A stretch of 35,408 nt of DNA from a virus, in IMG/VR virus record IMGVR_UViG_3300049617_000307, positions 1 through 35,408 of that record; one strand, 5' to 3'. The translations under genes and the position numbers were made by a program. Under the pieces are notes generated by a model. That model had not been told where the DNA came from. It searched no databases and worked only from the letters and a program-made list of their open reading frames with translations. Position 1 is the first letter of the stretch; each line of letters begins with the position of its first letter. This document shows positions 5,489-31,673 of this stretch, one piece after another.

Positions 5489-6427
5489 TCAAAAATGCTC
5501 GGAAACCTTATCCCAAAAAATGCTGCATGCTTTCCGATATTTATCCGGAGCATGCTTTTGGAGGACACGGAAAAACCCTCGTGGTTCTGCCAATCGTTCC
5601 AGTTTCTTAATCCTGAGGGCTCGATTTTCAGGAGTAAAGCTGGTGTCCCCAAGGATTTTCTGAGAAAGAAGTGAGAAAAACTCATCTGACAATCCGAGCC
5701 AGCTCTTAGCTAGCAATTGTTTATAGCGGCTGTTTTGTTTTCCCTTTTTGATTACCCGAATGAAATCTTCAATCTGATCACGAAGATTGGTAAAAAACTC
5801 TGCATCCATCAAAGCATGCTGTTCGACATGAGACAAGCCTTCGGGTGGTTTTTCTTTCTCTAATTGTCCTTTTATTTTGTCGGAAGGTAATCCATGCAAT
5901 TTGCCATTATCGATCAGGTAAAAAAGAAGCAGTTGAGAAACATGCTGTAATTCATGTTTTATAGTAGATTGGATAGAATTTAATCGTAGCTGAAAGATAG
6001 GATTAGAATTAATCTCTGGATTTAATCGTAGGGTAATCAGTCTTTTGACAAAATTAAAGCTGCCAATGTCTCCATTAACATTAGGTTCTCTGGTCAATTT
6101 ACATTGAAAATCATTAGGTAGGAGGGAGATTTTCTTAGCAAACTCTGGTTTCATAGGTTTCCAACCTGTAAGATCCAGAGGGACAGATATAAATTTATCC
6201 TCATTGAAGGAGAATTTGTGTTCATTCATTATCTTGAGCTGCAAAAGCAGCTCTTCCTGCTGTGATGTCCTATCTTTTACCCCTAAAAGATAGTTTCGCA
6301 CTGCCCCAGCATAGAAGAAAATGACCTTTTTCTCCAGCAGGGCAACCATAGCCGGAGGAGGTTCCAGCATGGAGGTTGCCAGAGAAAGCAGTAAATTGGA
6401 TTGTTTATGAAGATAAAAGATAGACAA
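5489..6427 (-). CDS. Zincin-like metallopeptidase-domain protein
   Basis: A 312-residue protein with a canonical HExxH zinc-protease motif, HELQH at residues 158-162, in a predicted helix (STIKHELQHVSQ). A second cluster of possible ligands, HVEQHALMDAEF at about 200-211, lies ~40 residues later, the spacing expected for the third zinc ligand. The N-terminal ~90 residues have no recognised domain. No signal peptide is evident. The gene begins one base after the stop of another HExxH protein, so the two are almost certainly co-transcribed and may act together. In phages such zincins occur as injected or virion-associated proteins, but the substrate here is unknown. HExxH is seen directly; activity is inferred. 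Confidence 0.65.
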   Translation of the reverse strand: MSIFYLHKQSNLLLSLATSMLEPPPAMVALLEKKVIFFYAGAVRNYLLGVKDRTSQQEELLLQLKIMNEHKFSFNEDKFISVPLDLTGWKPMKPEFAKKISLLPNDFQCKLTREPNVNGDIGSFNFVKRLITLRLNPEINSNPIFQLRLNSIQSTIKHELQHVSQLLLFYLIDNGKLHGLPSDKIKGQLEKEKPPEGLSHVEQHALMDAEFFTNLRDQIEDFIRVIKKGKQNSRYKQLLAKSWLGLSDEFFSLLSQKILGDTSFTPENRALRIKKLERLAEPRGFFRVLQKHAPDKYRKACSIFWDKVSEHF

Positions 6428-6428
6428 A

Positions 6429-8228
6429 TTACGCCTTTTCCAAAAGAATTTCTTTCAATTCAGCTTTCTCTTTAGGTTTTTTGATTTCATGATGATCGAG
6501 CAAATGATCGACATAATTTTCTGCCTCGTCTTTTCCTTTATGTAAAGATAGGTATTCTACCTGATTAGAAAACGCCTCTTGTTCAGAGGTATTGTGCAAA
6601 TATGATCCTTCATTGGAAGATTGTGTCGGTTCATCGCTAAATCCCTGCTGGAAAAAATGTGAAAACTCGTGAAGAAGATAGGAGTAATTTTCGGAAAAAT
6701 CTCCTGAAAGAAGGAGTTGCCAAGAAAGAATAACGACGCCATGATCAGTCTTTGCAGAGGTGTCAATGTCACCAAATTTAGTCGGAATAAGATTGATAAT
6801 TTCAGGAGAAACCTTCCACTCCTTGCAAATTCTCTTCCAAACCTTATCCTTGATCAAGGTCTTCTTTGCCTGATTAATCAGGCGGAGTAGAGAGCTTGGC
6901 GGGATTTTTTTAATCTCATCCAGAGCAAGCTTGGATTTCTTTGCTGCAAAAGCCAGCTTTTCTTTGTGGAGAAGAAATTTAATTCTATAAACAAATTCTA
7001 TTGGAAATAGATTTTCTTTTTCTACAATTTGCATAATCATCTGCCTTAGATGAGCATTACCAGCACTATTTCTGGTAATGGAATATAAAATTCCCTCAAT
7101 CTCAGCGGGAGAGCCGCCATCATTAATATATTCTTTAATTTTTGTCAGGACATTGACAAGAATATGTTCTGGTATAGTTCGATTGCCAGCAAGCAATCTC
7201 AATATTTCATTATCTCCAAGCTCAATCAGCTTTTGATAATAAATATCAAATTTTGTCCCCATATATATTCCCTCTGCCATCCATTTAGGATTATGATCAA
7301 TGATATAATTAGCAAATCTTTCTAAAATATTATGTGATATACGATCAGGAAAAGCTGTATCATAAAAAAAATTATCAAAATTATTCTTATTAGAAAGTAA
7401 CATGGTAAATGCATTATCTGGTAAATGCTTATTTTCCAAAAGCAAAAATGCTATTATAGGGTTATTAGCGTATTTTGTCGCAATTCTGTCTAAATGTTCA
7501 GGATCGGTTATTTTTGGTATTCTATAGCTTAACTCATATTTCCCCTTATCTTTTTGTAATAACATCTTTGTATCGGTAGGAGAAAGTAGGTTTTTATTAA
7601 CACTGGGATCGTGCATATTTGTATGAGGATTGTAAAAGGTATCATTAATCTGAATAATGGTAGGATCTAGGATGACAATTTGTGTTGGCTCGTTAGAATG
7701 AATAACACTCTGTCCTGGATCATAGACATTAGTCCGTCCCAACTTCCGAAGAAGATGATTCCATCCCCGCATACCTCCAGAAACTATTCTGGTTAAATTC
7801 CAAAATTTGGATATGGCAGAAGACGGATCATTAGCACTATTGAAAGCCTCCTGAATTTGATCATCGGTCAAAGCTGGAAATAAAGATTTAATCTTAGGCA
7901 AATCTTTATTCAAATCACCATCTGTGTATTCAGAAAGATTAAAAAGAGGGGCAGAAATAGAAAAAACATTAATAAATGGCTTTTCTCCAGCAAATGGAAG
8001 GGTATTAGAAATAATGCTATCAAACATCTCCTTGGTCAAGGGATAGGCATAAACGCCGAGAGGCGTATTAAATGAGCTCCTTGGATTGAGCCCGACCTTA
8101 TTAATATTGGTCATGGTAAAGAAAAATCGTGGATGAGCTTCATCCGAGATAAATGGCTTTAAGGCTTCCGCCAGAGTGTTTGTATCTATTCTGGCTTGCT
8201 TATTGAACGAGCTAATACTAGAGGGCAT
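6429..8228 (-). CDS. Large zincin protein with ART/polyvalent-like N-terminal region
   Basis: A 599-residue protein. Near the C-terminus HEFSH (residues 520-524, context YLLHEFSHFFQQGF) is a textbook HExxH zinc site, and EQEAFSNQVEYL at about 549-560 offers the downstream Glu ligand. The N-terminal ~200 residues contain GLNPRSSFNTPLGVYAYPL (46-64) and SNEPTQIVILDP (178-189). From memory this pair of motifs occurs in ART-like domains of phage polyvalent proteins; I cannot verify that here. The middle (about 240-460) is helical, with repeat-like units (ANNPIIAFLLLENKHLP, DHNPKWMAEG). The architecture fits a multi-enzyme protein delivered with phage DNA. The start is the ATG at 8228, with a candidate promoter element about 45 bases upstream. 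Confidence 0.65.
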   Translation of the reverse strand: MPSSISSFNKQARIDTNTLAEALKPFISDEAHPRFFFTMTNINKVGLNPRSSFNTPLGVYAYPLTKEMFDSIISNTLPFAGEKPFINVFSISAPLFNLSEYTDGDLNKDLPKIKSLFPALTDDQIQEAFNSANDPSSAISKFWNLTRIVSGGMRGWNHLLRKLGRTNVYDPGQSVIHSNEPTQIVILDPTIIQINDTFYNPHTNMHDPSVNKNLLSPTDTKMLLQKDKGKYELSYRIPKITDPEHLDRIATKYANNPIIAFLLLENKHLPDNAFTMLLSNKNNFDNFFYDTAFPDRISHNILERFANYIIDHNPKWMAEGIYMGTKFDIYYQKLIELGDNEILRLLAGNRTIPEHILVNVLTKIKEYINDGGSPAEIEGILYSITRNSAGNAHLRQMIMQIVEKENLFPIEFVYRIKFLLHKEKLAFAAKKSKLALDEIKKIPPSSLLRLINQAKKTLIKDKVWKRICKEWKVSPEIINLIPTKFGDIDTSAKTDHGVVILSWQLLLSGDFSENYSYLLHEFSHFFQQGFSDEPTQSSNEGSYLHNTSEQEAFSNQVEYLSLHKGKDEAENYVDHLLDHHEIKKPKEKAELKEILLEKA

Positions 8229-8271
8229 AGAGAAGATGCCAGATTAACGGATGGAGAAGGAATTATGGCGT

Positions 8272-8286
8272 AATGATTGCCCATCT
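8272..8286 (-). promoter_or_regulatory. Possible third copy of the late-promoter-like element
   Basis: AATGATT-GCCCATCT on the plus strand matches the 17-base element found before the major capsid and decoration-like genes, except for a 2-base gap. It lies about 45 bases upstream of the 599-residue zincin gene and in the same orientation relative to it. The gap makes this weak evidence on its own. Confidence 0.25.
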
Positions 8287-8366
8287 GACGTTGGTGCTTG
8301 TCTTCATTCATTATCTTGATTTGTTAGTCGTTAAGTATAATTTGATATAAATCATGATCAAATGGC

Positions 8367-8380
8367 GGGGCGGGAGCCCC
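8367..8380 (+). repeat. GC hairpin upstream of tnpB (candidate left-end structure)
   Basis: GGGGC and GCCCC form a perfect 5-bp stem around GGGA, 47 bases before the tnpB ATG in otherwise AT-rich sequence. IS200/IS605-type elements carry subterminal hairpins recognised by TnpA, so this may mark the element's left end. No TnpA gene is present, and the boundary itself cannot be fixed by eye. Confidence 0.4.
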
Positions 8381-8427
8381 ACTCCTTAACAGATTATAAG
8401 AGCAATCTTACAGTGTAAAAACACTTC

Positions 8428-9735
8428 ATGTCCATGACAAAGAAAGTTAAATCATCCAAACATTCCCTCTCCGAATTAAACTTCGGAAAAGAATGCAAAA
8501 TATCTTCTTTCATCTCGGATTACAGAGATGCCGTTCAATTTTACATCGATTATCTCTGGAATAACAAAATAACAATCATCGTCAAAGATCAAGAAAGAAT
8601 TCTTGATATCAAAAATGATCTTCTAGATTGTCCTCAATTCATTTCCATCAAAACTCTTGATTTTCAAGGAGATCTTTCTGCAAGAGCACGTTGCTGTGCA
8701 GCAACACAAGCTTGTGGTCCTGTCTCAGGAGCCATTGCAAAAAGAAGAAAACTTCTCTTTGTCCTCTCAAAGAGAAGAGAAAATCGTGAGAGAACTCGTA
8801 AAGTTAACAAAAAGCTGAAAGATGAAAAGCTAACAAAACCATCAGCAAAAAATGTTAGACCAGAACTAAATTCTATCTGCTGCTCTATCGAACCATCTTC
8901 TATCAAGCATTTTGATACTGTAATCACCTTAAAATCTCTTGGTAAAAAGTATGGGAAAATCATTATTCCCATTAAACATACCAAACATTCAAGAGAATTA
9001 CAAAATAAAAACAGTAAAATGCTTACCTCCATCCTCCTCTCCGAGGACAATATCAATTTGAGAAAGGAGATGCCGAAGGCATCTCCTTCACAAAATCAAA
9101 TTGATGCTGTCGGGTGTGATACAGGGATCAAGACCATCGCTCAATTCTCGTCGGGCGTCAAGACGCCCGACAAAGATATTCATGGTCATGATCTAACCTC
9201 TATCCTTCACAAAATCAAAAGAAAGAAAAGAGGATCAAAGGCATTTCATCGTGCTCTTGATCATAAAAATAACTTTATCCGATGGTCAATAAATCAGCTC
9301 AATTTATCAAATGTTAAGGAGATTAGACTTGAATTTGTGTCTAATTTTAGACACAAGAAAAATGTCGGAGAGTTCTTAAACCATTCAGGAGAAGCTCTAA
9401 TAAGGAGTAAGCTCATAGATTTTGCAGAAGAAAATGGCGTCCATATTGTTCTACAAAATTCTGCTTACAGATCTCAGAGATGTTCTTACTGTGGTTATGT
9501 AGATGAAGATAATCGTAAGGAAAAGCTGTTCAGTTGTAAAAACTGTCTCTTCAAGAGCGATGCGGATTTAAACGCCAGTTTAAATCATGAGCAGGACTTA
9601 CCTTGCGCTAATTTTCTTCGTTTTCTTCCGGGAAAGAATGAGAAATTCTTTTGGAGTTCAAAAGGATTTTTTAACCTAGTAGGTCAAGAGATTACAGTCC
9701 CTGACACATACAATAAAAGATATAAAAATATCTAA
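8428..9735 (+). CDS. tnpB: TnpB family RNA-guided nuclease (IS200/IS605-type), intact-looking
   Basis: A 435-residue protein with the split RuvC nuclease of TnpB: AVGCDTGIKT with D231 (RuvC-I), IRLEF with E302 (RuvC-II) and DADLNAS with D380 (RuvC-III). Between the last two is a four-Cys zinc finger, C352-x2-C355 and C370-x2-C373. TnpB enzymes cut DNA using a guide RNA made from the element's right end. All key residues are present and the length is normal. There is no tnpA, so movement would need a helper. It lies opposite to the structural genes and interrupts them. A short AGTGT/ACACT hairpin (8412-8425) abuts the start and no clear ribosome-binding site is seen; ATG 8434 is an alternative. 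The coding sequence is exceptionally rich in perfect inverted repeats (see findings). Confidence 0.88.
   Translation: MSMTKKVKSSKHSLSELNFGKECKISSFISDYRDAVQFYIDYLWNNKITIIVKDQERILDIKNDLLDCPQFISIKTLDFQGDLSARARCCAATQACGPVSGAIAKRRKLLFVLSKRRENRERTRKVNKKLKDEKLTKPSAKNVRPELNSICCSIEPSSIKHFDTVITLKSLGKKYGKIIIPIKHTKHSRELQNKNSKMLTSILLSEDNINLRKEMPKASPSQNQIDAVGCDTGIKTIAQFSSGVKTPDKDIHGHDLTSILHKIKRKKRGSKAFHRALDHKNNFIRWSINQLNLSNVKEIRLEFVSNFRHKKNVGEFLNHSGEALIRSKLIDFAEENGVHIVLQNSAYRSQRCSYCGYVDEDNRKEKLFSCKNCLFKSDADLNASLNHEQDLPCANFLRFLPGKNEKFFWSSKGFFNLVGQEITVPDTYNKRYKNI
9052..9105 (+). repeat. 54-base nested inverted repeat inside tnpB
   Basis: Outer arms 9052-9061 and 9096-9105 are perfect 10-bp complements. Inner arms 9066-9074 and 9078-9086 are perfect 9-bp complements around GAA, extendable to 12 bp with one bulged A. 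It codes for the linker just before RuvC-I (about residues 209-226). It is the largest of many hairpins in this gene. Confidence 0.8.
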
Positions 9736-10182
9736 CTGTTCATTGTTGAAGACCTCGACCTTCGTGGGTGCAGGGGAGCCAAAAGGTTCGCCTACAGGGC
9801 GCTCCATCACAGCCTAGAGGTCAAGGCTCCCTGTGAGGTCGTCAACCCTGCCTATTCAAGCCAGACATGTCCTTCGTGCGGTTACGTCTCGCGAAGCAAT
9901 AGGTCGGGGATCAAGTTCATCTGCCGTGCGTGCGGCAGGAAAAGTCACGCGGACGCGGTAGGAGGGATCAACTTGCTCGGACGTTCCGAGGACAAACAGG
10001 TTGGGCTCGACGATCACCCATCCGCCGTGAAGGCTTTGCTGAGAGAGCGATTTCGGGCGCGATGCCGGACGAGTTCCTCGGGAGAGTCCGTACAGAACGC
10101 GCTCGCACCGTCGAGCCGGAGGCTTACTACCGAGACACCGCAAGGGCTCGGCACAGCATCGAATCAGGTGGTTACCTCATGA
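9736..10182 (+). pseudogene. tnpB: 3' relic of a second, GC-rich tnpB
   Basis: Directly after the TAA of the intact tnpB, and in the same frame, an open stretch encodes the C-terminal third of another TnpB: FIVEDLDLRG (RuvC-II with its Glu), AYSSQTCPSCGYVS and FICRACGRKSHADAVGGINL (zinc finger and RuvC-III Asp). It ends at a TGA at 10180-10182. The 5' two thirds, including RuvC-I, is missing and no start codon is present before the RuvC-II region. GC content is visibly much higher than in the upstream tnpB and the flanking phage genes, so this piece has a separate origin. The fusion point suggests that one TnpB element replaced or inserted into another. The relic cannot make an active nuclease, but its downstream guide-RNA region may survive. 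Confidence 0.85.
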
Positions 10183-10262
10183 TCAACTTTGAGCAACTTC
10201 CCGAATACGGTAGGAAATAGCTGTGGCATGCAGCCTGGTCGCTCCGAAGCCACTGCCCACCC

Positions 10263-10291
10263 TTGACACAACCCGGTAAGAGACCTATCGT
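10263..10291 (+). promoter_or_regulatory. Sigma70-type promoter for the HTH gene
   Basis: TTGACA (10263-10268) is followed after exactly 17 bases by TATCGT (10286-10291), a near-consensus sigma70 pair, 18 bases before the ATG at 10309. GGAGAG at 10300-10305 is a good ribosome-binding site, so the leader would be very short. The stretch from 10183 to 10262 is the right-end region of the tnpB relic and may hold a guide-RNA scaffold, but I cannot fold it convincingly. Confidence 0.6.
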
Positions 10292-10308
10292 CTCGCGACG
10301 GAGAGATT

Positions 10309-10638
10309 ATGCATCCACCCACATCATCAGACATTAAAGACAAAGCAGTTGAACTTTATCTTTCTGGCAAAGGATCCGATTCTATCGGAAAAGAACTTGG
10401 TATGTCTGCTAAGAACGTTCTTAGTATTTTAAGAGAAAGAAATGTTGAAAAAAGGAAGCCGACACGGGCACTCTCTGACGCCGAAGAGCTTGATGTTGTT
10501 GCCAAATATAATGAAGGCAAATCGGAATATATTTTATTTCAAGAATATAATGTTAGCTCTCGAACCATTCACAAATGTTTACAGAAACATAATGTACAAA
10601 TGCGTCCGAGAAAAGTTAAAGGATCCAAAATGGCATAA
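10309..10638 (+). CDS. Small double helix-turn-helix DNA-binding protein
   Basis: A 109-residue basic protein with two predicted helix-turn-helix units: about residues 10-43 (KAVELYLSGKGSDSIGKELG then MSAKNVLSILRERNV) and 58-95 (DVVAKYNEGKSEYILFQEYN then VSSRTIHKCLQKHNV). The first resembles the HTH of transposases and resolvases, in which an element-spacing phrase precedes the recognition helix. No catalytic domain is present, so it is more likely a regulator, or the DNA-binding remnant of a recombinase, than an enzyme. A strong promoter and a ribosome-binding site precede it, and a strong terminator follows within 11 bases, making it a free-standing unit. Its target is unknown. Confidence 0.65.
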   Translation: MHPPTSSDIKDKAVELYLSGKGSDSIGKELGMSAKNVLSILRERNVEKRKPTRALSDAEELDVVAKYNEGKSEYILFQEYNVSSRTIHKCLQKHNVQMRPRKVKGSKMA

Positions 10639-10648
10639 ACGAAATAAC

Positions 10649-10676
10649 GAAAAAGCCGCTGTCAAGCGGCTTTTTC
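10649..10676. terminator. Intrinsic terminator between HTH gene and major capsid gene
   Basis: A perfect 12-bp stem (10649-10660 with 10665-10676) around GTCA, with A-tract and T-tract inside the arms. It can work in both directions: it ends the plus-strand HTH transcript and also lies 45 bases after the stop of the minus-strand major capsid gene. Confidence 0.85.
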
Positions 10677-10720
10677 TATGTTAGCCCAGGATGCAACTAA
10701 CTATGCGATATCATTAAGGA

Positions 10721-11734
10721 TTACGCCCCGATAACGATGGATTTCCTACCACAGGCAGTGCCGCGTGGGTTGGCTATTGCCAATCCGAGTATTTCACTTA
10801 CAACCCAACCGAGCTTTAGTTGTCTCGGTTCATCTGCGGGCAGAACTTCAATATCCTGCTGAACTGGCATTACGCCAACGAACTCAGGATCAGCGCAACC
10901 ATACACTGTCCCTGGAGGAACAATCTTGCTAACCATGATATCCGCGCCCCAGATGTGTCCATAGAGACCTGTCTGGAGTACCTCACGCATTGTAACGGGA
11001 TCGAAATCGCCGCCACCAACGCCCTGACCACCACCGCTGCCCCACTTCAAGATATCCGTAAACTCATTGATGTTGAAGAAGAACTTGGTTGTTACCAGGT
11101 CCCAGCGATCAATCTGCTGCTTAATCTCGACGAGATCACGCTTCAAAAGACCAGCGTCAGCGATATCGGTCAAGGTGTTCTCGACCGAAGCCGCAGAATC
11201 GATAGCCGCGAATACGTTAGCATCTTCCTGAGCCTGAATTTCCTGACGACCCTTCTGCACGGCACGGTCAATGACATTAAACCGACGACGCTTGACCTCG
11301 GCGATACGCACCGTGGGATTACAGATAATCTCAAAAAGGGGAACCAGGATACGATCGCCGAAGACACGGCTTTCGGGAGCCGAGCCGTTAGACGATACGA
11401 TTACTGCCGCTACATCGATATCACGGTCATAGGTAGGAATAGCACCTTGAGCAAGTGGATCAACTACCAGAGCCCGGCGGGCAATTCCATGGTAATCAAG
11501 GTTTCTACGAATGGGGCTAGCCATCGCCTGAGCCAGAGCAATCTTACCATCCTGGGTCATCATAGCACGAGCAATAAGCTCATCCCGCTTGTCATCGGAC
11601 AAGCTGGTCTGACCGGCAAGCCCGAGGTTGGCGGGCTGGTTATCTTCGAGGATCGAAGCGTATTTGTTGAGCTGAACTGCTAGGTCTTTCATCGACGAAG
11701 CGTTCATCTGCCCACGACTATCAAACATATTCAT
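10721..11734 (-). CDS. Major capsid protein (HK97-fold type)
   Basis: A 337-residue protein. After an N-terminal helical arm (about 1-75) come the features of phage major capsid proteins: SPIRRNLDYHGIARRALVVD, AIPTYDRDIDVAAVIV, a strand-rich middle, and near the C-terminus QDIEVLPADEPRQLKLGWVV and EILGLAIANPRGTACGRK, which match the usual P-domain and A-domain ending. Its GC content is higher than that of the fibre genes next to it, as expected for a highly expressed gene. A candidate late-promoter element lies about 90-105 bases upstream and a terminator follows. The placement is odd: the capsid gene is about 16 kb downstream of the protease/scaffold gene, with fibre-like genes and a restriction-modification cassette in between. 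Assignment is by sequence pattern only. Confidence 0.8.
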   Translation of the reverse strand: MNMFDSRGQMNASSMKDLAVQLNKYASILEDNQPANLGLAGQTSLSDDKRDELIARAMMTQDGKIALAQAMASPIRRNLDYHGIARRALVVDPLAQGAIPTYDRDIDVAAVIVSSNGSAPESRVFGDRILVPLFEIICNPTVRIAEVKRRRFNVIDRAVQKGRQEIQAQEDANVFAAIDSAASVENTLTDIADAGLLKRDLVEIKQQIDRWDLVTTKFFFNINEFTDILKWGSGGGQGVGGGDFDPVTMREVLQTGLYGHIWGADIMVSKIVPPGTVYGCADPEFVGVMPVQQDIEVLPADEPRQLKLGWVVSEILGLAIANPRGTACGRKSIVIGA

Positions 11735-11857: not shown

Positions 11858-14185
11858 TTATACAGATGATCTAATTGGTCCATTATTTACAACTGTAGTT
11901 GTTGTAGTAGCTACATAAGGTCCAGGTATATTTGCTTGGACCAGTTGTGCTCCCCAGGCATAAATAGTTCCTGTTCCTGCCCCAGCATAAACAATGCTAC
12001 CATTTACACTTGCAAGTCCAATTGTTGGAAGAAAACCAGAGTAATTGTTCAATGATATTGAACAACGATACCAACCATTACCTACTGATTGCATGGTTGC
12101 ATTTACGTTTGTAGATATTGTACCAATGACACCAGAAGAAATATTAAAATAAGCGCCATACCCAGTATTAGCTTCCTGTAAGTTACACCAGTTTAATGTT
12201 CCAGATTTCAAATAAGCAGAAAATGTGTAAAGCACCCCTAGTGAAGCACTTGAGGGCGATATATATGTATAATGTGAGGTTGGACTTCCGTCAGACGAGT
12301 CGGTTAACAGCGTGGCAGTGGTTGTTCCGTCTGGAGCAATTGTAGAATTTAACGTTGGCGTAATATGTACTTGTACGGTCCAAGCTATCGCTTGCGATTT
12401 AGTTAATAAATTCTGAGTTTGAGGCACAATAGAACGAATAGGTCCATTATTAACAACAGTACCTGTGGTTACTTGATAAGGTCCCATCCAATTTGCTTGA
12501 ACATATTGTGCTCCCCAGATATAAATCTGGGCAGAAGATGTGTCTGTAGCAGCATATGTATTAGCACTACTGCTTCCTGAATTAGCAGGATATATATCAA
12601 CACCCAATCCATTTGAAGTAATAAAAGAAATTGAACAACGATACCAACCATTAGATAAAGCTGTGATTGTGGTCACAGGGCTTCCTGTGGAAGTTCCAAC
12701 AGATCCAGAACCTGACAAATTAAAGAATGCGCCTACATTACCGCCTTCAGTTGAAATATAAGCAAAGGATACAGTGCCTGCCTTAATATAGCAACTAAAA
12801 GTTGCGTTTATATTTTGTTTTTGAGATAAATACTGAAATACATAATGTATTACAGTAGAAGTGGTACTAGCAACTAAAGCTTCACCAGTTAATGTTCCAT
12901 CTGGTGCTGTGGTAGCCGCTGTATTTATAGTACAGTTACCTTTTGTCCAAGTAGCGTTGTCAAATGTTTGCGATTGAAGTAATAAATTCTGAGTTTTAGG
13001 TACAATAGAACGAGTTTGACGTACAACAGAACGAATAGGTCCATTATTAACTGCTGATGTTGTGGTTGCTACGTAAGGTCCAGGCTGATTAGATTGAACA
13101 TATTGTGCTCCCCACACGTAAATCTGAGGCGTCGTCGTGTCCGCGGCGGCGTAGGTGTTACTGCCGTTCGCCGAGGCAATCTCTACATACACAGTACCAG
13201 GAACGTACTTCTTGACGATGGTTAGAGAGCACCTGTACCAACCATTTGCCACTGCTTGGATCGTTGCGGTCCCGACTCCTGTGGCTGTGCCAGTAGCGCC
13301 AGCCCCAGCCATGTTGAAGTAAACGTAGAATGACCCGCTGTCAATATAGATCAGGGCCCAGGACACAGCGCCTGCTTTAAGGTAGACCGAGAACGTGGTC
13401 GTCTGTCCTACTGAAAGCGCCGCTGGCTCAGCCGCGTTCACGTCGTGTATAACGCTCGTCGTGACCGTCGAGACCATGGCCTCACCTGTTAACGTACCAT
13501 CAGGTGCTATGGTTGCGGCAGGAGTTACGGCAACATATTGTTTTGTCCAAGTAGCACTATCAAATGTTTGCGATTGAAGTAATAAATTCTGACTTTGATA
13601 TACAATAGAACGAATGGGTCTATTATTTATAGCTGTTCCTGTAGTTATTTGATAAGGTCCAGCCCAATTTGCTTGAACATATTGTGCTCCCCACATATAT
13701 ATTTGAGTAGAAGATGTATCTGTAGCAGCATAGCTGATCGAACTACCAGTGCTAACAGGCGAAATAAAAGGTCCGCTGCTTCCTATGTGTGCTCTAATAC
13801 AAGAAACAGAGCAACGATACCAACCATTAGATAAAGCTGTGATTGTGGTGGCTGTAGGACTTCCTGTGATTGTTCCAATAGAGCCAGCACCAGAAATATT
13901 AAAATAAACGGCTATCGTTTCATTATCAATAGCCGTGTAACACCAAGAAACCGCGCCAGCTTTTACATAGAAGGAAAATGTTGCTGGTTGTCCAATAGAA
14001 ACAGAAGGTTCTAATTGGGTGGCATAATGAAAAGCGCTACTTGTTGTATTAGCAATAAATGCTTCACCAGTTAATGTTCCATCTGGGGCTATAGTGGCGG
14101 CAGTTGTAATTGTACCATTTGCTTTAGCCCAAGAAGCGTTGTCAAACGTTTGGCTTTGCAATATGAGATTTTGTATTTGTGCCAT
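11858..14185 (-). CDS. Fibre/adhesin-like protein of four ~190-residue repeats
   Basis: A 775-residue protein made of four tandem copies of one beta-rich domain, at about residues 4-193, 198-387, 398-587 and 590-773. Each copy shows QNLLLQSQTFD-x-ATW, APDGTLTGEA, TFS-x-Y-x-KAG, YFN-x-SG, NGWYRCS, Y-x-WGAQ and VNNGPIRS in order. Domains of this pattern occur in phage tail fibres and bacterial surface proteins as carbohydrate-binding-like beta-sandwiches, so a sugar-binding role on the virion surface is likely but inferred. Copy 2 (bases about 13120-13535, residues 217-355) is strikingly GC-rich while its edges and the other copies are AT-rich, which indicates a swapped-in segment. A 32-base perfect repeat, 12961-12992 and 13561-13592, marks the starts of copies 3 and 2. 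Confidence 0.75.
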   Translation of the reverse strand: MAQIQNLILQSQTFDNASWAKANGTITTAATIAPDGTLTGEAFIANTTSSAFHYATQLEPSVSIGQPATFSFYVKAGAVSWCYTAIDNETIAVYFNISGAGSIGTITGSPTATTITALSNGWYRCSVSCIRAHIGSSGPFISPVSTGSSISYAATDTSSTQIYMWGAQYVQANWAGPYQITTGTAINNRPIRSIVYQSQNLLLQSQTFDSATWTKQYVAVTPAATIAPDGTLTGEAMVSTVTTSVIHDVNAAEPAALSVGQTTTFSVYLKAGAVSWALIYIDSGSFYVYFNMAGAGATGTATGVGTATIQAVANGWYRCSLTIVKKYVPGTVYVEIASANGSNTYAAADTTTPQIYVWGAQYVQSNQPGPYVATTTSAVNNGPIRSVVRQTRSIVPKTQNLLLQSQTFDNATWTKGNCTINTAATTAPDGTLTGEALVASTTSTVIHYVFQYLSQKQNINATFSCYIKAGTVSFAYISTEGGNVGAFFNLSGSGSVGTSTGSPVTTITALSNGWYRCSISFITSNGLGVDIYPANSGSSSANTYAATDTSSAQIYIWGAQYVQANWMGPYQVTTGTVVNNGPIRSIVPQTQNLLTKSQAIAWTVQVHITPTLNSTIAPDGTTTATLLTDSSDGSPTSHYTYISPSSASLGVLYTFSAYLKSGTLNWCNLQEANTGYGAYFNISSGVIGTISTNVNATMQSVGNGWYRCSISLNNYSGFLPTIGLASVNGSIVYAGAGTGTIYAWGAQLVQANIPGPYVATTTTTVVNNGPIRSSV
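12961..12992 (-). repeat. 32-base direct repeat, copy A (start of fibre domain 3)
   Basis: Identical to 13561-13592 and exactly 600 bases away, so it keeps the reading frame. It encodes NLLLQSQTFD at the beginning of domain 3. It could support in-frame loss or exchange of a whole domain by homologous recombination. Confidence 0.85.
13561..13592 (-). repeat. 32-base direct repeat, copy B (start of fibre domain 2)
   Basis: Second copy of the 32-base repeat, encoding the start of domain 2. The GC-rich insert lies between the two copies. Confidence 0.85.
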
Positions 14186-16458: not shown

Positions 16459-17141
16459 ATGATACGAAAACTATCCAAAGATAAAGTGAAAAGCCTTTCA
16501 GATAAAATTGGTTTGATGGTCGATATTTCAGCAATCGATTATATGATGACCGAAAATGGTCAATATGATCTATCAAGATCGCGATCTTTTATGGATTATG
16601 CTTTTGCAGATCGCATCTGCATAGATCCTCGCCGTCAATCTTTTGATGAAAAACTTCAAATCAAGAAACTAAATAACTTTTTCGATCAGCCTGTAACCAA
16701 GCTACCAATGGTTCTAAATATTTAATCGGTGGGCGATTTGTCCCGCTAGCAGAAATCAGTATCCCAGGCGGACCCGATCTTGATGCACTGATGTCGGACA
16801 ATGGATACGAGATTGGTATCGCCTGTAAAGGCGGACAAAAAGTAGGAGGAGGAGGTCAAAATAAGCAATTCAAAGATTTGGTAAATCTAATTGATCAGTC
16901 TCCTAGACGAGGATTTGCCGGGAAAGAGCTAGCCTGTATATATATCAGCGGAGATTTTTGGACGCGTATTCGTGATACCACGTATCTAGGATACGAGAAG
17001 CTTATATCTGGTAAATTTAACCTTATCGATTTACTACGTAAATTGGCTTCTGACAAAAAATGCATTATATTGTCTGATAATGATCTTCCAGAAACAAAAT
17101 CCTCGTTCTACAAGACCTTTATCGAAGGAAAGCTTGAGTAA
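16459..17141 (+). pseudogene. Putative restriction endonuclease, frameshifted
   Basis: Two overlapping frames join into one protein of about 227 residues. The first frame (16459-16725) ends in FFDQPVTKLP before running to a stop; the other frame continues sensibly from about 16700 with NGSKYLIGGRFVPLAEISIPGG and on to the TAA at 17139-17141. A single-base loss near 16707, in the CCAAT context, explains the break. PGGPDLDALM and YEIGIACKGG could be the two halves of a PD-(D/E)xK-type site, but the second is not canonical. The main argument for an endonuclease is the methyltransferase immediately downstream, overlapping by 8 bases. As it stands the gene should be inactive unless the ribosome shifts frame or the read has an error. 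Confidence 0.55.
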
Positions 17142-18246
17142 AGCCTCTCTAGGTCAGTTTTTCACTACCAATGCAGAATATATCCTGCAAGGATTTGAGA
17201 ACACTATAGTAGGTAAACAGGTTCTTGACCCTTTTGCTGGCAACGGAGACTTGCTTAAATGGGCGGAGAAGAATGGAGCCAGAAATGTTAGAGGCTTGGA
17301 TATCGATCCAGAGCTAACTAATGATCAAATAGGTCTAAACGATAGTTTGCTCGCCATTCCACAAGCCGACATGATTATCACCAACCCTCCTTATCTCGCT
17401 AAGAACAAGATGTCTCCTGAGAGAAAGGAGAAAATCAATCTTGGTTCACTTGAAGATCTGTATCTTCTTTCTATGGATCGGGTCCTTGCATCTGGAACCA
17501 CCGAGGGGATCATCATCGTTCCCATCAACTTCCTTTCGGCAGAAAATTCCGATGAATTACGGTGAAAATTTCTGGACACCTATCAAATTACACGAGCTAA
17601 CTACTTTAAGCAACGCGTTTTCGATGACACCAGCTACAATGTAATTGCTTTCCATTTCGTCAGAAAGACCACCTCTTCGGTGGAGTTGCCTATCACCATC
17701 TTTCCGGATGGTGAGACTAAGGAATTTGTTCTAGAGCCGGAGTATAGCTATCGGATTGCTGGAAAAGAGCTTGCTGAACTTGTCCCAAAGAAGATGCTCA
17801 AAATACTCCGTCTGACCGAGGAAATGATGAAGAGTAATTCTGGGACAGAAGATATTTTTGCCTTCTTCAACGACAAGAACACCTGTTATACCTATCCAGT
17901 TACTCGATATTTTAAGCAAAGGATCAAGAGCAACATCATTCTGCTTAACTGCATTGATACCAATGGATCAGAGGACGGCTGGTTGTCTGCGGAGGATATC
18001 CGCACATTGAATTCTGATTGTTTAGTAGGAAAAACGAGCAGTCGAAACATTGCATTCGTCCTTCTTCCATCGGAAGTATCCATTGCTGACCAAGAGAAGA
18101 TGATCACTCTGTTTAATAAGACAATTAGGGCTCTGCGATATAAATATGCTAGTCTTTTTCTGACCAATTTCCGAGACAACGACCGCAAAAGAGTTTCGTT
18201 TGACTTTTGTTATCGCTTGCTCTCCTGGTCTTACGAGCAATTATAA
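17134..18246 (+). pseudogene. N6-adenine DNA methyltransferase, interrupted by in-frame TGA
   Basis: Starting at TTG 17134 (overlapping the upstream stop), the product opens with SKASLGQFFTTNAEYIL (motif X), then VLDPFAGNGDLL (motif I, S-adenosylmethionine binding), GLDIDP (motif II) and MIITNPPYLAKNK (motif IV, catalytic NPPY). This is the gamma-class N6-adenine type found in type II restriction-modification systems. At 17563-17565 a TGA interrupts the frame after NSDELR; the same frame continues at once with KFLDTYQITRANYFKQRVFD to a TAA at 18244-18246, about 370 codons in all. The second half would carry target recognition. An ATG at 17080 is an alternative start. The truncated product keeps motifs X, I and IV but probably cannot bind its site, so modification is likely lost. 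Confidence 0.75.
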
Positions 18247-27581: not shown

Positions 27582-30500
27582 TCAGAACATCCTCGACTTA
27601 AAGCTACCCGAAAGAGCAGCCGAAAGAAGGTCAAAATCATTCTCCACCGCAGCCCCATGGCTCTCCATACTATCACGAAGACCAACTGTAGGGATACGAG
27701 CAGCAGCCTGCTTCAAGATAGGAGTCTTGGCACAGACATTTTTCAATGTCTGGAAATTATCCTCCGAGAAGCTCATCAGCTCATCGACATTAGCTGCAAT
27801 CACCGCCCGGTCATGCTTGACCAGACCACGATCCACCATGTCATAGGTCAGCTCATAGGCACGAGCCATCTTAACCTTGAATGTATTTAGATCCTTCTCC
27901 ATCTGAGCCTTGACATGCTCCTTGGTTAGCTCAGCAGCGAATTCCGCACCACCATCTACCTGACCGTAGAACTTCTTGAAGTAATCTACCGCCGCCTTAT
28001 CAGCACCGTTAGCAACAAGATCATCCAGATCAGCAACATCCAGCTCGCCAGCTTTAACCAGATCAGCAATCATCTGAGCTTCTTTGCGAACCTTGGGAGG
28101 CATCTTCGCAAGCTCCATCATCGCCTTATTGGTCTCATTGACCGTCTCAAACTTGCCGTATGGAGCTGTTGGCTTAATATCAAGGTCCACCTCGCCATCA
28201 GCAAGCTTGTGTGCTGCATCAAGCATTGGGGAGAACTTCTCCTTGCTCATATCCCGCAGACCACCATCATCCTCTTTACCGGTAGCGTCATACGCCAGCT
28301 TGGCACGCAGAGCATCACGACCATTCTTGGTCTTAACCGCTTTATCAAAAGCAGCTACCGTAATTGTCGTCCCAGGCTTAACCGAAAGGTCTTTCAGCTC
28401 CTCAGGCTTAGCGGTAAGATCATTCTCATCCTCAGAACCAAGATCATGCTCATGGGAATGCCTGTCAAGATCCAGGTCTAGATCACCAAGACCATCAAGA
28501 TCGGTGTCATCACTAGTTTCATCGTCTCCGCTCTCATGGCTTTCGTCGGCATCGCCGTCGCTGTCCATTAGCTCTTTAACATGATCTAGATCGTCGTTTG
28601 TATCCTGGATGAGGGACATCAGATCATCCTCACCGCTAACATCCTCATCCTCCATAACACTCTCCTGAGCCAGAGCCGTTAATTCAGCCTGAACCTCTGC
28701 CGCCTTAACCATTTCCTGAGTCGCCTTAGCATACTTCAAGAATGTCCGCATCAGCTCAAAGCCATCCGCCAAGGCAACCTTAGCATCCTTCTCCGCCGAC
28801 GCCTGAACCTCGCTAACAAAGTCGCGATTAGAGGCAACCACCGCCCCATTCTCCCGAAGATCAGCCAAGGTACGAAGCTCACTTTCTAGATCATTCAGCT
28901 GAGCAATGGTCTGCTTCATTTCTGATATCATTGAGGAGTTAAGCTCCTTGCGAATTTGGTGCATTTGGCGATCTTCTGCCGATGCTCCCATTGGCTCACC
29001 CATCTCAGCCTGCTCACCAGTCAGCTCACGGACACTCTCCACCAAATCCGAGGAAAGATCACGCATCTGCTCTGCCTTTTCAAGGGCACTATCCTTCTTA
29101 TCCCCGTCCTTGCCCGTATCCTTAGGTCCACCTTCTGGTGGAGGAGGTGGCTCTTGTGGAGCCCCTGCATCAGGGGGAGGGGGGGCGTCCCCCGCTGGAG
29201 GCGGGGGAGGAGCAGCCTGAGCGCTCTTGAGCATAGAGCTAACCCTATCTGCTCCCTGAGCCTTAATCTTCTCAATTAGCTTCTGACCAAATTCTGCTGT
29301 GTTGATGGTATCGAACATCAGCTCGGAACGACCACCAGACAGGTCCTTGACCGAGGCTGTCAGAAGAAGCTTATCACCCAGACGAATTTCCCAGGCGGAA
29401 TTATCTAGATCACGGGTACCATTATCTTTGCTTGCCCGAACAAAACGACCATGAAGGGTTCCAGCTCGGCGAAGCATTTCCTTGCGCTTTAGCTCATCCT
29501 TATCATCAGCGCTCTCGGGAGAGGGGTGCAAACCGTCGACATCTCCAACACCAGGGAAGGGCTTCTGTCCAACCATCTGCTTATCTTCATTACGAGCCTT
29601 CTCATTGAGAGGATCTTTTGGATATTTCACCTTACCAGGGGTAGGTGTACCAGGATTAACGCCCTCACCATTATGCCAGTAAGCCTTCTTGTCCTCTAAA
29701 GCTCGGCGAGCCATATCGACAATAGCCTGACGACGGATGGCTTTTTCCTCGGCAGCAGCACGAGCCAGCAATCGCTTGCGCTCTAGCTCATCGGAGGTGT
29801 CAGCTGACATTGGCGAAGGATGCAGTCCATCTACATCACCAACACCTGGAAAAGGAGATTGTCCGTTCATTTGCTTATCATTATGATTACGGCTCTCCTC
29901 ATTGAGCGGATCTTTCGGATATTTCACCTGCCCGGGAGTAGGCTCTTCCGTTCCCTGATAATATCCCTTGCTTGTGAGTTTTTCTGAAACCGACATGTTT
30001 TCCTCTTGTTTTCCCGTGGCGAGTTTGTTTAGACTGTCCCGAAGCATCCCCAGCTTAGCTCCGATAAGATTGATAGTGTTATTCAGCTCATTAGCAAATC
30101 TGGCTACTGGGGGTGCCAGACCTTCCGTCGGTTCTCCGAGGAACTCTTCCACCGATGCCAGAGAATTAGTATCCTCTGTCTTTTTAGCCTCATCGGAGAT
30201 GAGTTTTAGCTTAGAAAAAGCTTCATCCAAATCTTTCTTGAAGCTTTCCAAGCTGTCCGATTTGATCTGAATTTGCCCGGTTTCAGAAACTTGACCATCT
30301 CCCGCGAAACTTAGATTAGCAGAATATGTCCCGGCAAGCTTTTTAAATTCCTGTTCCTTGGAAGAAACATAAGCCAGCATGGTATCTGCTGAGGCAATGA
30401 CATGCTTGATGTGAGCCTTTGGATCAGCTCCATTGACCACGATGGATAGCTCAATGGGGTTGAGACCAGTGTTAATTTCGCCGTAGCCTGATTTTGTCTT

Positions 30501-31673
30501 CATGTGGTGGCAGAAATCAGACTCAGCACGAGCGACTTTGCCACAATCAGTGCAAATAGCCGCACTGACTCCTGTACCCATCGAACAGGAGGTTTGCATA
30601 CCGGTGCTCACCTTGCGCGCCAAATCGGGGTAGTTAGCCTTGTCCAAGGCACAGAGAGCAACGACGCGTTTGAGCTTTCGATCATAGTAAGTATCAACGA
30701 TGAAGCCACGGGTATGATCCACACTGCTCGATTTGTGATCGATGCAGAGTGGCTTATGGCGCCATTTCTTGTACGCTTTAATAAGCTCATCTTCAGGAAA
30801 GATATCGCAGTTATGCGAAATAACGCCGTTGGCAATGTAGGTATGGTCTTCCTCGACCTCAAAATTATACACATCGCCAGAGAAATCGATTTCTTCAATG
30901 TTCAATATAGGATGGAGTACATAGTCTTCTTCGAACTGTCCAGAAGAACGGGGGACATAACTTTCGTTGGTAGGCTCGTAATCTACTCGCTGACGGATGA
31001 TGGGCGAAACCAGAATATCGGCATCATCAAGCTTCCCGGCTTCCGAGAACTTGTAGGTAGGAACATAGTTTGGGTCAGATTTACGCCGCCGATTAACATA
31101 TTTGAGACCGCCACGGGTTCCATAGTCGTCGAGATTAACATGAAACAGTGGATGTTCTGCCGTACAAAACAAGGTCTCGTTGTTCTTGACCTTGATTTTG
31201 AGTAGCTTTCCATCATGATGACGCTTGTTCGTGGCAAGAACCGTCCTGATACGACCTTTGTGAGTGAAGACCCGATCGCCGACTTCGATGTCCTCAATGC
31301 TCTTCGTAGAGCCATCGAACATGAGGATTTTAGTGCCTGCCTTGAAGCAGTTAGCGTTCTTGTAAGGCATCACGCTCGGATCATTTGTGACCCAGCGCAT
31401 CGTGCCGCCTGTTGTATTCCATCCCACCTGCACCGGCTCACCACGAGAGGTAAGCTTAGGAGAGCCATCGTCGTTAATGGCAGCAGCCTCTGCCGCATGC
31501 ATCATCACCGCTGAGAAATAAAGAAAATCATCCGCCTTCGGCGCGATCCGCTTCAAATTAGCAGCAGTCTTTTGGAAAGCTTCCAGAACATCTGCCGAAA
31601 CCTCGGGAATACAAGATGCGGGATTCTCAATTCCGTTAATCTCAATCATTTCTCCCAGCTTGACAAAGCTCAT
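27582..31673 (-). CDS. Prohead protease-scaffold polyprotein containing a mini-intein
   Basis: 1363 residues. An intein occupies C109-N288. The spliced protein brings NANC together with DIFPEDELIKAYKKW, then KPLCIDHKSSSVDHTRGF (H312 candidate catalytic His), CALDKANYPDLARKV, SCSMGTGVS (S362/S364 candidate nucleophile) and a metal-like C374-x2-C377...C388-H389. This pattern fits head-maturation proteases that also bear scaffold sequence. Downstream are two copies of a ~62-residue repeat (578-640, 677-738), a proline-rich linker (821-846), helices, and an acidic Asp/His region (about 1036-1086). The C-terminal ~270 residues are helical, as expected for scaffold. The gene overlaps a 49-residue gene by ATGA. 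Protease class and catalytic residues are inferred; the intein is clear. Confidence 0.8.
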   Translation of the reverse strand: MSFVKLGEMIEINGIENPASCIPEVSADVLEAFQKTAANLKRIAPKADDFLYFSAVMMHAAEAAAINDDGSPKLTSRGEPVQVGWNTTGGTMRWVTNDPSVMPYKNANCFKAGTKILMFDGSTKSIEDIEVGDRVFTHKGRIRTVLATNKRHHDGKLLKIKVKNNETLFCTAEHPLFHVNLDDYGTRGGLKYVNRRRKSDPNYVPTYKFSEAGKLDDADILVSPIIRQRVDYEPTNESYVPRSSGQFEEDYVLHPILNIEEIDFSGDVYNFEVEEDHTYIANGVISHNCDIFPEDELIKAYKKWRHKPLCIDHKSSSVDHTRGFIVDTYYDRKLKRVVALCALDKANYPDLARKVSTGMQTSCSMGTGVSAAICTDCGKVARAESDFCHHMKTKSGYGEINTGLNPIELSIVVNGADPKAHIKHVIASADTMLAYVSSKEQEFKKLAGTYSANLSFAGDGQVSETGQIQIKSDSLESFKKDLDEAFSKLKLISDEAKKTEDTNSLASVEEFLGEPTEGLAPPVARFANELNNTINLIGAKLGMLRDSLNKLATGKQEENMSVSEKLTSKGYYQGTEEPTPGQVKYPKDPLNEESRNHNDKQMNGQSPFPGVGDVDGLHPSPMSADTSDELERKRLLARAAAEEKAIRRQAIVDMARRALEDKKAYWHNGEGVNPGTPTPGKVKYPKDPLNEKARNEDKQMVGQKPFPGVGDVDGLHPSPESADDKDELKRKEMLRRAGTLHGRFVRASKDNGTRDLDNSAWEIRLGDKLLLTASVKDLSGGRSELMFDTINTAEFGQKLIEKIKAQGADRVSSMLKSAQAAPPPPPAGDAPPPPDAGAPQEPPPPPEGGPKDTGKDGDKKDSALEKAEQMRDLSSDLVESVRELTGEQAEMGEPMGASAEDRQMHQIRKELNSSMISEMKQTIAQLNDLESELRTLADLRENGAVVASNRDFVSEVQASAEKDAKVALADGFELMRTFLKYAKATQEMVKAAEVQAELTALAQESVMEDEDVSGEDDLMSLIQDTNDDLDHVKELMDSDGDADESHESGDDETSDDTDLDGLGDLDLDLDRHSHEHDLGSEDENDLTAKPEELKDLSVKPGTTITVAAFDKAVKTKNGRDALRAKLAYDATGKEDDGGLRDMSKEKFSPMLDAAHKLADGEVDLDIKPTAPYGKFETVNETNKAMMELAKMPPKVRKEAQMIADLVKAGELDVADLDDLVANGADKAAVDYFKKFYGQVDGGAEFAAELTKEHVKAQMEKDLNTFKVKMARAYELTYDMVDRGLVKHDRAVIAANVDELMSFSEDNFQTLKNVCAKTPILKQAAARIPTVGLRDSMESHGAAVENDFDLLSAALSGSFKSRMF
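29460..29645 (-). repeat. Internal ~62-residue repeat, copy 2
   Basis: Encodes PTPGKVKYPKDPLNE through GVGDVDGLHPSPESAD to KEMLRRAG (residues 677-738). It matches copy 1 closely at protein level and partly at DNA level. Such Pro/Gly segments may be protease cleavage or assembly modules. Confidence 0.85.
29754..29942 (-). repeat. Internal ~62-residue repeat, copy 1
   Basis: Encodes PTPGQVKYPKDPLNE through GVGDVDGLHPSPMSAD to RLLARAA (residues 578-640), 99 residues before copy 2. A basic helix (about 640-668) separates the copies. Confidence 0.85.
30810..31349 (-). other. Mini-intein (180 residues) within the head protease
   Basis: The intein begins at C109 with CFKAGTKILMFDGSTKSIED (block A), then TAEHPLFHV (block B, with the T-x-x-H core), and ends with DVYNFEVEEDHTYIANGV (block F) and ISHN followed by C289 (block G and +1 nucleophile). 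About 90 residues separate blocks B and F, with no LAGLIDADG or HNH endonuclease motif, so it should splice but not home on its own. All key splicing residues (C1, block B His, penultimate His, terminal Asn, +1 Cys) are present. Confidence 0.9.

What the first reader, a model, noticed from the sequence alone, without database searches (positions are those of the whole stretch)
8412..9733. TnpB coding sequence packed with long perfect inverted repeats
Reading tnpB shows at least a dozen local perfect hairpins: 8588-8607 (8 bp), 8690-8705 (7), 8752-8777 (10), 8951-8972 (7), 9052-9105 (10 plus 9-12 nested), 9150-9171 (10), 9335-9356 (10), 9565-9586 (9), 9633-9651 (7), 9718-9733 (6) and smaller nested ones near 8461-8530. 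Chance predicts far fewer than one stem of 9 bp or more with a short loop in 1.3 kb, yet five or six exist inside a gene whose catalytic residues are intact. Possible causes: selection for folding of single-stranded DNA or RNA (IS200/IS605 elements move as ssDNA), hairpin-templated mutation that perfects imperfect palindromes, or a structured mRNA tied to guide-RNA production.
Basis: partly seen in the sequence, partly recalled or inferred. Interest (0 to 1): 0.72.

Follow-up and report, generated by a model that had tools for sequence, protein, structure and literature searches.

The report
Phage tnpB gene full of hairpins
A gene for an RNA-guided DNA-cutting enzyme (TnpB) in a large phage really does carry about thirty times more long perfect hairpins than its protein and codon usage predict; the best-supported cause is a known copying error (template switching at near-palindromes), although a role for the folded messenger RNA is not excluded.

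Summary
The tnpB gene (8428-9735, +) holds 10/6/5/4 perfect stems of >=7/8/9/10 bp with loops of 2-10. Synonymous-codon shuffles average 1.6/0.62/0.15/0.07, and 0 of 3000 reach the observed counts. It is the most extreme gene of the window; the other genes hold 8 stems >=9 bp against about 1.7 expected.

Among 113 viral tnpB genes from two searches, stems >=8 bp are 2.7x expectation, against 1.3x in other ORFs. The window gene and one unrelated IS607 tnpB family (L199) are the outliers. A third set of 45 tnpB genes from another clade showed no excess, and homing endonucleases none. It is therefore not a property of tnpB as such.

Most of the excess is strand-symmetric Watson-Crick pairing. Stems are not shared with the nearest relative and turn over between tnpB pairs like chance stems. 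In the L199 family stems stay perfect while loops change, one by exact inversion: the footprint of template switching.

I favour template-switch creation and perfecting of quasi-palindromes (0.5). Selection on mRNA folding is the main rival. For the window gene itself the mechanism is inferred, since no close homologue was found.

The parts
8428..9735 (+). tnpB coding sequence, 435 aa, 36% GC, RNA-guided nuclease family (PF07282 at its C-terminal part)
8470..8530 (.). three 6-bp perfect stems (8470-8487, 8488-8510, 8511-8530)
8588..8607 (.). perfect stem 8 bp, loop 4
8690..8705 (.). perfect stem 7 bp, loop 2, in the RCCAAT codons
8752..8777 (.). perfect stem 10 bp, loop 6
8951..8972 (.). perfect stem 7 bp, loop 8
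9046..9111 (.). outer imperfect stem, 16-nt arms 88% complementary, enclosing the 9064-9088 stem
9064..9088 (.). perfect stem 11 bp, GAA loop, just upstream of the first catalytic Asp codon (9118-9120)
9126..9193 (.). outer imperfect stem, 12-nt arms 92% complementary, enclosing the 9150-9171 stem
9150..9171 (.). perfect GC-rich stem 10 bp, loop 2; encodes SSGVKTPD, a place where the protein is longer than its relatives
9335..9356 (.). perfect stem 10 bp, loop 2, starting 2 nt after the catalytic Glu codon (9331-9333)
9565..9586 (.). perfect stem 9 bp, loop 4, over the DLNASLN motif with the third catalytic Asp
9633..9664 (.). two overlapping stems, 7 bp (9633-9651) and 6 bp (9648-9664)
9718..9733 (.). 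6-bp stem reaching into the stop codon
9738..10005 (+). 3' remnant of a second, GC-rich (58%) TnpB fused directly behind the stop codon; not part of the hairpin excess

Best explanation
The hairpins are mostly products of DNA-level template switching. During replication or repair of the phage DNA, the polymerase copies one arm of a chance quasi-palindrome from the other (or from the nascent strand), creating or perfecting an inverted repeat, flipping loops, and later repairing arm mismatches. The TnpB protein tolerates many of the resulting codon changes, so the perfect stems accumulate while the catalytic residues are kept. Shown here: the excess, its near-symmetry between strands, its milder presence in the rest of the phage and its kin, its lack of positional conservation, and template-switch-like footprints in another hairpin-rich tnpB family. 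Inferred: that the window gene itself got its stems this way, and that its rate of switching (or tolerance of the products) is unusually high.
For: Window gene: 5 stems >=9 bp vs 0.15 expected. Other genes of the same phage 8 vs 1.7. ORFs at capsid-gene loci of kin phages: >=8 bp 145 vs 94, >=10 bp 27 vs 8.3; this is a genome-wide tendency rather than a gene-specific signal. Fold excess is strong on both strands (sense z -7.4, antisense -5.3). One-mismatch stems in tnpB are not biased to G-T over A-C (7 vs 7). Broken pairs between related tnpB are G-T 30, A-C 33. Stems do not sit at the same places in the nearest relative L005. Over 24 independent tnpB pairs, stems are no better kept than stems of other genes (third-position rate ratio 0.75 vs 0.76). 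In the L199 family (94-96% identical tnpB), stem third positions vary 4/80 vs 52/308 outside (P=0.007); one loop is exactly inverted (GAA to TTC between intact 8-bp arms); 3 of 15 multinucleotide changes fall in loops that make up 4% of the columns. Arm homogenisation, loop inversion and greater conservation of the repeats are the described marks of template switching (PMC8604942, PMC8794818). An excess of short coding inverted repeats in prokaryotes has been ascribed to it (Ladoukakis and Eyre-Walker 2008, as cited in PMC4060949).
Against: It does not explain why certain tnpB clades exceed their neighbours 2.5-fold while homing endonucleases, also selfish and copied by break repair, do not. 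Only one exact loop inversion was found, and a scan of 886 other related gene pairs found none. Residues encoded by stem arms in the window gene are not less family-like than the rest (0.81 vs 0.89 bits), as plain overwriting would predict. GNRA, UNCG and GNA loops are over-represented in the sense strand, and sense folding is somewhat stronger than antisense. No close homologue of the window gene was found, so no event in it was seen directly.
Confidence: 0.5

Rival explanations
1. Selection for a folded tnpB mRNA: the stems damp translation, stabilise the message, protect it from cutting, or take part in TnpB processing its own mRNA into omegaRNA.
For: Sense fold z -7.4 (window), -7.3 (L199), -4.4 (L005), each stronger than antisense by 1.2-1.8 SD. 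Sense-strand stable loops in tnpB: GNRA 8 vs 1.8, UNCG 5 vs 0.6, GNA 14 vs 5.1, while their reverse complements rise less. Stem third positions conserved in the L199 family. TnpB cutting its own mRNA into omegaRNA is published (PMC10278001).
Against: Ordinary genes show the same sense-minus-antisense bias (-0.72 vs -0.54 in random tnpB). No excess of G-T over A-C pairs. Stems of tnpB pairs turn over like chance stems. Stem positions not shared with L005. One tnpB clade has no excess.
Confidence: 0.25
2. The stems near the 3' end are omegaRNA scaffold; the rest is background.
For: Last 200 nt of viral tnpB: stems >=8 bp 21 vs 4.6; interior 36 vs 17.3. L005 has stacked hairpins around its stop codon.
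Against: In the window gene the longest stems lie at 8752-9586, mostly far from the 3' end. No known RNA family was found there. The element's own 3' end is replaced by a remnant of another TnpB.
Confidence: 0.1
3. Selection for folding of single-stranded DNA during transposition.
For: IS200/IS605 elements move as ssDNA (PMC6006769, abstract). The excess is seen on both strands.
Against: The nearest relative and the other extreme case carry an IS607 serine recombinase, which works on double-stranded DNA (the last point is general knowledge). No TnpA beside the window gene. Known ssDNA recognition uses the element ends, not the gene interior (PMC6006769, abstract).
Confidence: 0.07
4. Insertion of a family of small palindromic elements into the gene (as in Rickettsia).
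For: At 9150-9171 the protein is longer than its relatives.
Against: The stems share no common sequence, several lie in conserved motifs, and most are not accompanied by extra residues.
Confidence: 0.03
5. Chance or assembly artefact.
For: A single metagenomic contig, chosen by a reader for its striking look.
Against: 0/3000 codon shuffles. The comparable L199 family recurs in several metagenomes with the same stems.
Confidence: 0.03

Closest known systems
[quoted passage not shown] discussed in PMC4060949)
   Same: Short perfect inverted repeats above expectation in coding sequences, ascribed to sequence-directed mutagenesis
   Different: There a small genome-wide excess; here about 33-fold for stems >=9 bp in one gene
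Coding palindromes in mitochondrial genes of Nematomorpha (PMC6649704)
   Same: Perfect inverted repeats inside functional coding genes, scattered, gained and lost, template switching proposed
   Different: Those reach 284 bp in mitochondrial genes; here 7-11 bp stems in a phage nuclease gene
Template switching between inverted-repeat arms in yeast genes (PMC8604942) and in rRNA genes (PMC8794818)
   Same: Arm homogenisation, loop inversion, clustered changes
   Different: Those were seen as events on trees; in the window gene only the end state is seen
TnpB / omegaRNA systems of IS200/IS605 and IS607 elements
   Same: The protein is a TnpB by profile and catalytic residues; 3'-end hairpins occur in many relatives
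   Different: No TnpA, no identified omegaRNA, 3' end joined to another TnpB remnant; interior hairpin density is not part of the described system

Membership tests
TnpB RNA-guided nuclease | RuvC D, E, D residues | tested here: met
   D231, E302, D380 invariant with L003 and L004
TnpB RNA-guided nuclease | C-terminal zinc-ribbon / TNB domain | tested here: met
   PF07282 49.2 bits, cut-off 26.3; four Cys present
TnpB RNA-guided nuclease | curated full-length TnpB model NF040570 | tested here: inconclusive
   59.7 bits, below the curated cut-off of 100
TnpB RNA-guided nuclease | omegaRNA at the 3' end | tested here: inconclusive
   no Rfam match of note in 8000-10800; the 3' end is fused to another TnpB remnant
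IS607 or IS200/IS605 element | adjacent TnpA gene | tested here: not met
   no recombinase ORF in the listing beside the gene; the relative L005 has an IS607 TnpA
Template-switch (sequence-directed mutagenesis) hairpins | excess of perfect short inverted repeats over codon-preserving controls | tested here: met
Template-switch (sequence-directed mutagenesis) hairpins | strand-symmetric Watson-Crick pairing | tested here: met
   with a weak sense bias left over
Template-switch (sequence-directed mutagenesis) hairpins | arm homogenisation or loop inversion between close relatives | tested here: inconclusive
   seen once in the L199 family; none in 886 other pairs; no close relative of the window gene
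Functional RNA structure | compensatory changes keeping pairs above controls | tested here: not met
   19 double changes at 105 tnpB stems vs 21 at 99 stems of other genes
Functional RNA structure | positional conservation in relatives | tested here: not met
   three of the nine L005 stem centres fall within window stems, about as expected from the share of the gene that stems cover (my count)

The most novel reading that the evidence does not exclude
In some phage tnpB lineages the whole message is a selected, structured RNA: the hairpins limit or time production of the nuclease, or steer its cutting of its own mRNA, with template switching only supplying the raw stems.
Probability: 0.15. Interest if true: 0.75.

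Novelty: new variant of a known kind. Interest (0 to 1): 0.45.

Why it matters
If template switching is the cause, certain phage-borne tnpB genes record this mutation process at unusually high density, and they let one ask why it runs faster (or is better tolerated) there than in neighbouring genes or homing endonucleases. If selection is the cause, tnpB messages have an undescribed regulatory layer. Either way, hairpins in a tnpB gene should not be read as guide-RNA scaffold without a codon-shuffled control.

Tried and rejected
1. General tnpB property: suggested by the first two sets (O/E 2.77 and 2.58) but not replicated in a third clade (12 vs 10.6). Even in the first sets the share of genes with an interior stem >=8 is 28/113 vs 45/217 in controls, so the interior excess rests on outliers.

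2. Copying by break repair as the common cause: not supported, because HNH homing endonucleases show no excess (10 vs 7.8).

3. Compensatory evolution: no surplus over other genes.

4. Overwritten arms visible as odd residues: no overall effect. A few arms fit (F-V after the catalytic Glu at 9335; T-P at 9150).

5. Close homologues of the window gene: none in viral contigs by single-protein search; two loci of one distant relative by alignment; two genome-contig scans found none.

6. Empty insertion site in kin phages: 41 capsid-gene relatives do not share the gene order and carry no match to this TnpB nearby.

7. RNA families: nothing at the locus, only tRNAs in related loci.

8. The first-200-nt excess in control genes is probably a start-codon artefact of mechanical ORFs; the first 100 nt were left out in later tests.

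Full report
What was checked. The gene is an open reading frame of 435 codons at 8428-9735 on the + strand. It matches PF07282 and phage transposase families and aligns with other phage TnpB proteins with the D, E and D residues and the zinc-ribbon cysteines in place. It scores below the curated cut-off of the general TnpB model, so it is a divergent member. The window is a 35.4 kb virus record whose capsid gene is 51% identical to that of Bacillus phage G.

The hairpins. All the listed stems exist. The four longest are 8752-8777, 9064-9088, 9150-9171 and 9335-9356; two of them sit inside larger imperfect stems (9046-9111 and 9126-9193). Against shuffles that keep protein and codon usage, the gene has 16/10/6/5/4 stems of >=6/7/8/9/10 bp where 5.8/1.6/0.62/0.15/0.07 are expected; none of 3000 shuffles, nor of 400 that also keep the codon-junction dinucleotides, reaches these numbers. 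Folding energy against synonymous shuffles gives z -7.4 for the sense and -5.3 for the antisense strand.

How special is it? In the same window the other genes hold 8 stems >=9 bp where about 1.7 are expected (summed), and the region 6001-7351 shows a similar fold excess. The gene is the extreme of a milder tendency of this phage. Kin phages found by the capsid gene show the same mild tendency (>=8 bp 145 vs 94). In 113 distinct viral tnpB genes from two searches, stems >=8 bp are 77 vs 28.6 expected (O/E 2.69, bootstrap 1.99-3.48), against 259 vs 194 (1.33) in other ORFs. Both searches agree (2.77 and 2.58). Part of this lies in the last 200 nt, where omegaRNA scaffolds overlap the gene (21 vs 4.6; the overlap is general knowledge). 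A third search with a different, GC-richer clade gave no excess (45 genes, 12 vs 10.6). Homing endonucleases gave none. The window gene and the L199 family stand far above all other tnpB genes. These two are not close relatives; L199 and the window's nearest relative L005 carry an IS607-type recombinase.

DNA or RNA level? Selection on the message should favour G-U pairs, act on one strand, and keep stems by compensatory change. One-mismatch stems show no G-T preference (7 vs 7), and broken pairs between relatives are G-T 30, A-C 33. Stems in tnpB pairs are kept no better than chance stems in other genes, and stem positions are not shared with L005 beyond chance. On the other side, the sense strand folds somewhat better than the antisense in the window gene, L199 and L005, and loops of known high RNA stability are over-represented. 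Ordinary genes also show a sense bias, so I count this as weak support for an RNA role.

Footprints of template switching. The L199 family gave four distinct full-length sequences of 94-96% identity, in six contigs. Its 14 stems are nearly all kept; stem third positions vary at 4 of 80 against 52 of 308 outside (P=0.007). One loop is exactly inverted (CAAAATGG-GAA-CCATTTTG to CAAAATGG-TTC-CCATTTTG). In L212 three stems are one or two pairs longer than in the other sequences. Of 15 clustered changes, 3 lie in loops that make up 4% of the columns. Published work names arm homogenisation, loop inversion and raised conservation of the repeats as marks of template switching (PMC8604942, PMC8794818). 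Against this, a scan of 886 other related gene pairs found no further exact inversion, so such events are rare or soon blurred. The raised conservation could also be selection, and the test shares the weakness that stems were defined on the same sequences.

Mechanism. I take the stems of the window gene to be products of template switching at quasi-palindromes, filtered by tolerance of the protein. Shown: the excess, its strand symmetry and turnover, the tendency in the rest of the phage. Inferred: the events in this gene and the reason for the high density. Why some tnpB lineages collect more than their neighbours is unexplained; a high rate of copying, weak constraint, or a mild benefit of mRNA structure would all do.

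Limits. Expected counts are small. Surveyed genes are mechanical ORFs from metagenomic contigs, and the first stretch of such ORFs may be non-coding. The sets were drawn by similarity, not at random. No close homologue of the window gene was available, and no experiment was possible.

Noticed in passing
window 9738-10005: Remnant of a second, GC-rich TnpB (from the RuvC Glu motif to the zinc ribbon) joined within a few bases behind the stop codon of the hairpin-rich tnpB; part of it (9781-10005) matches the huge phage LR745208 at 70.7% nucleotide identity, which has 3 such places.
   Followed up: partly
window 27582-31673 (-): The 1363-aa protein combines a head-maturation-protease match with an intein (Hint and intein-splicing domains).
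   Followed up: no
L116-L121 and L124: The major capsid gene of several kin phages is split by insertions of roughly 1-2.8 kb after about residue 71-94, probably introns or inteins.
   Followed up: no
window 11858-14185 (-): The 775-aa protein contains four similar internal repeats (NLLLQSQTFDNATWTK-like).
   Followed up: no
L095 2713-6347: Three tandem partial homologues of the window's 599-aa gene (6429-8228) lie side by side upstream of the capsid gene.
   Followed up: no
window 16791-18246 (+): Three short + strand ORFs, one with a weak DNA methylase match, look like pieces of one broken methyltransferase gene.
   Followed up: no
L208 and L212 (contig IMGVR_UViG_3300028364_000020): One phage contig carries two copies (94% identical) of the hairpin-rich L199-type tnpB.
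   Followed up: partly
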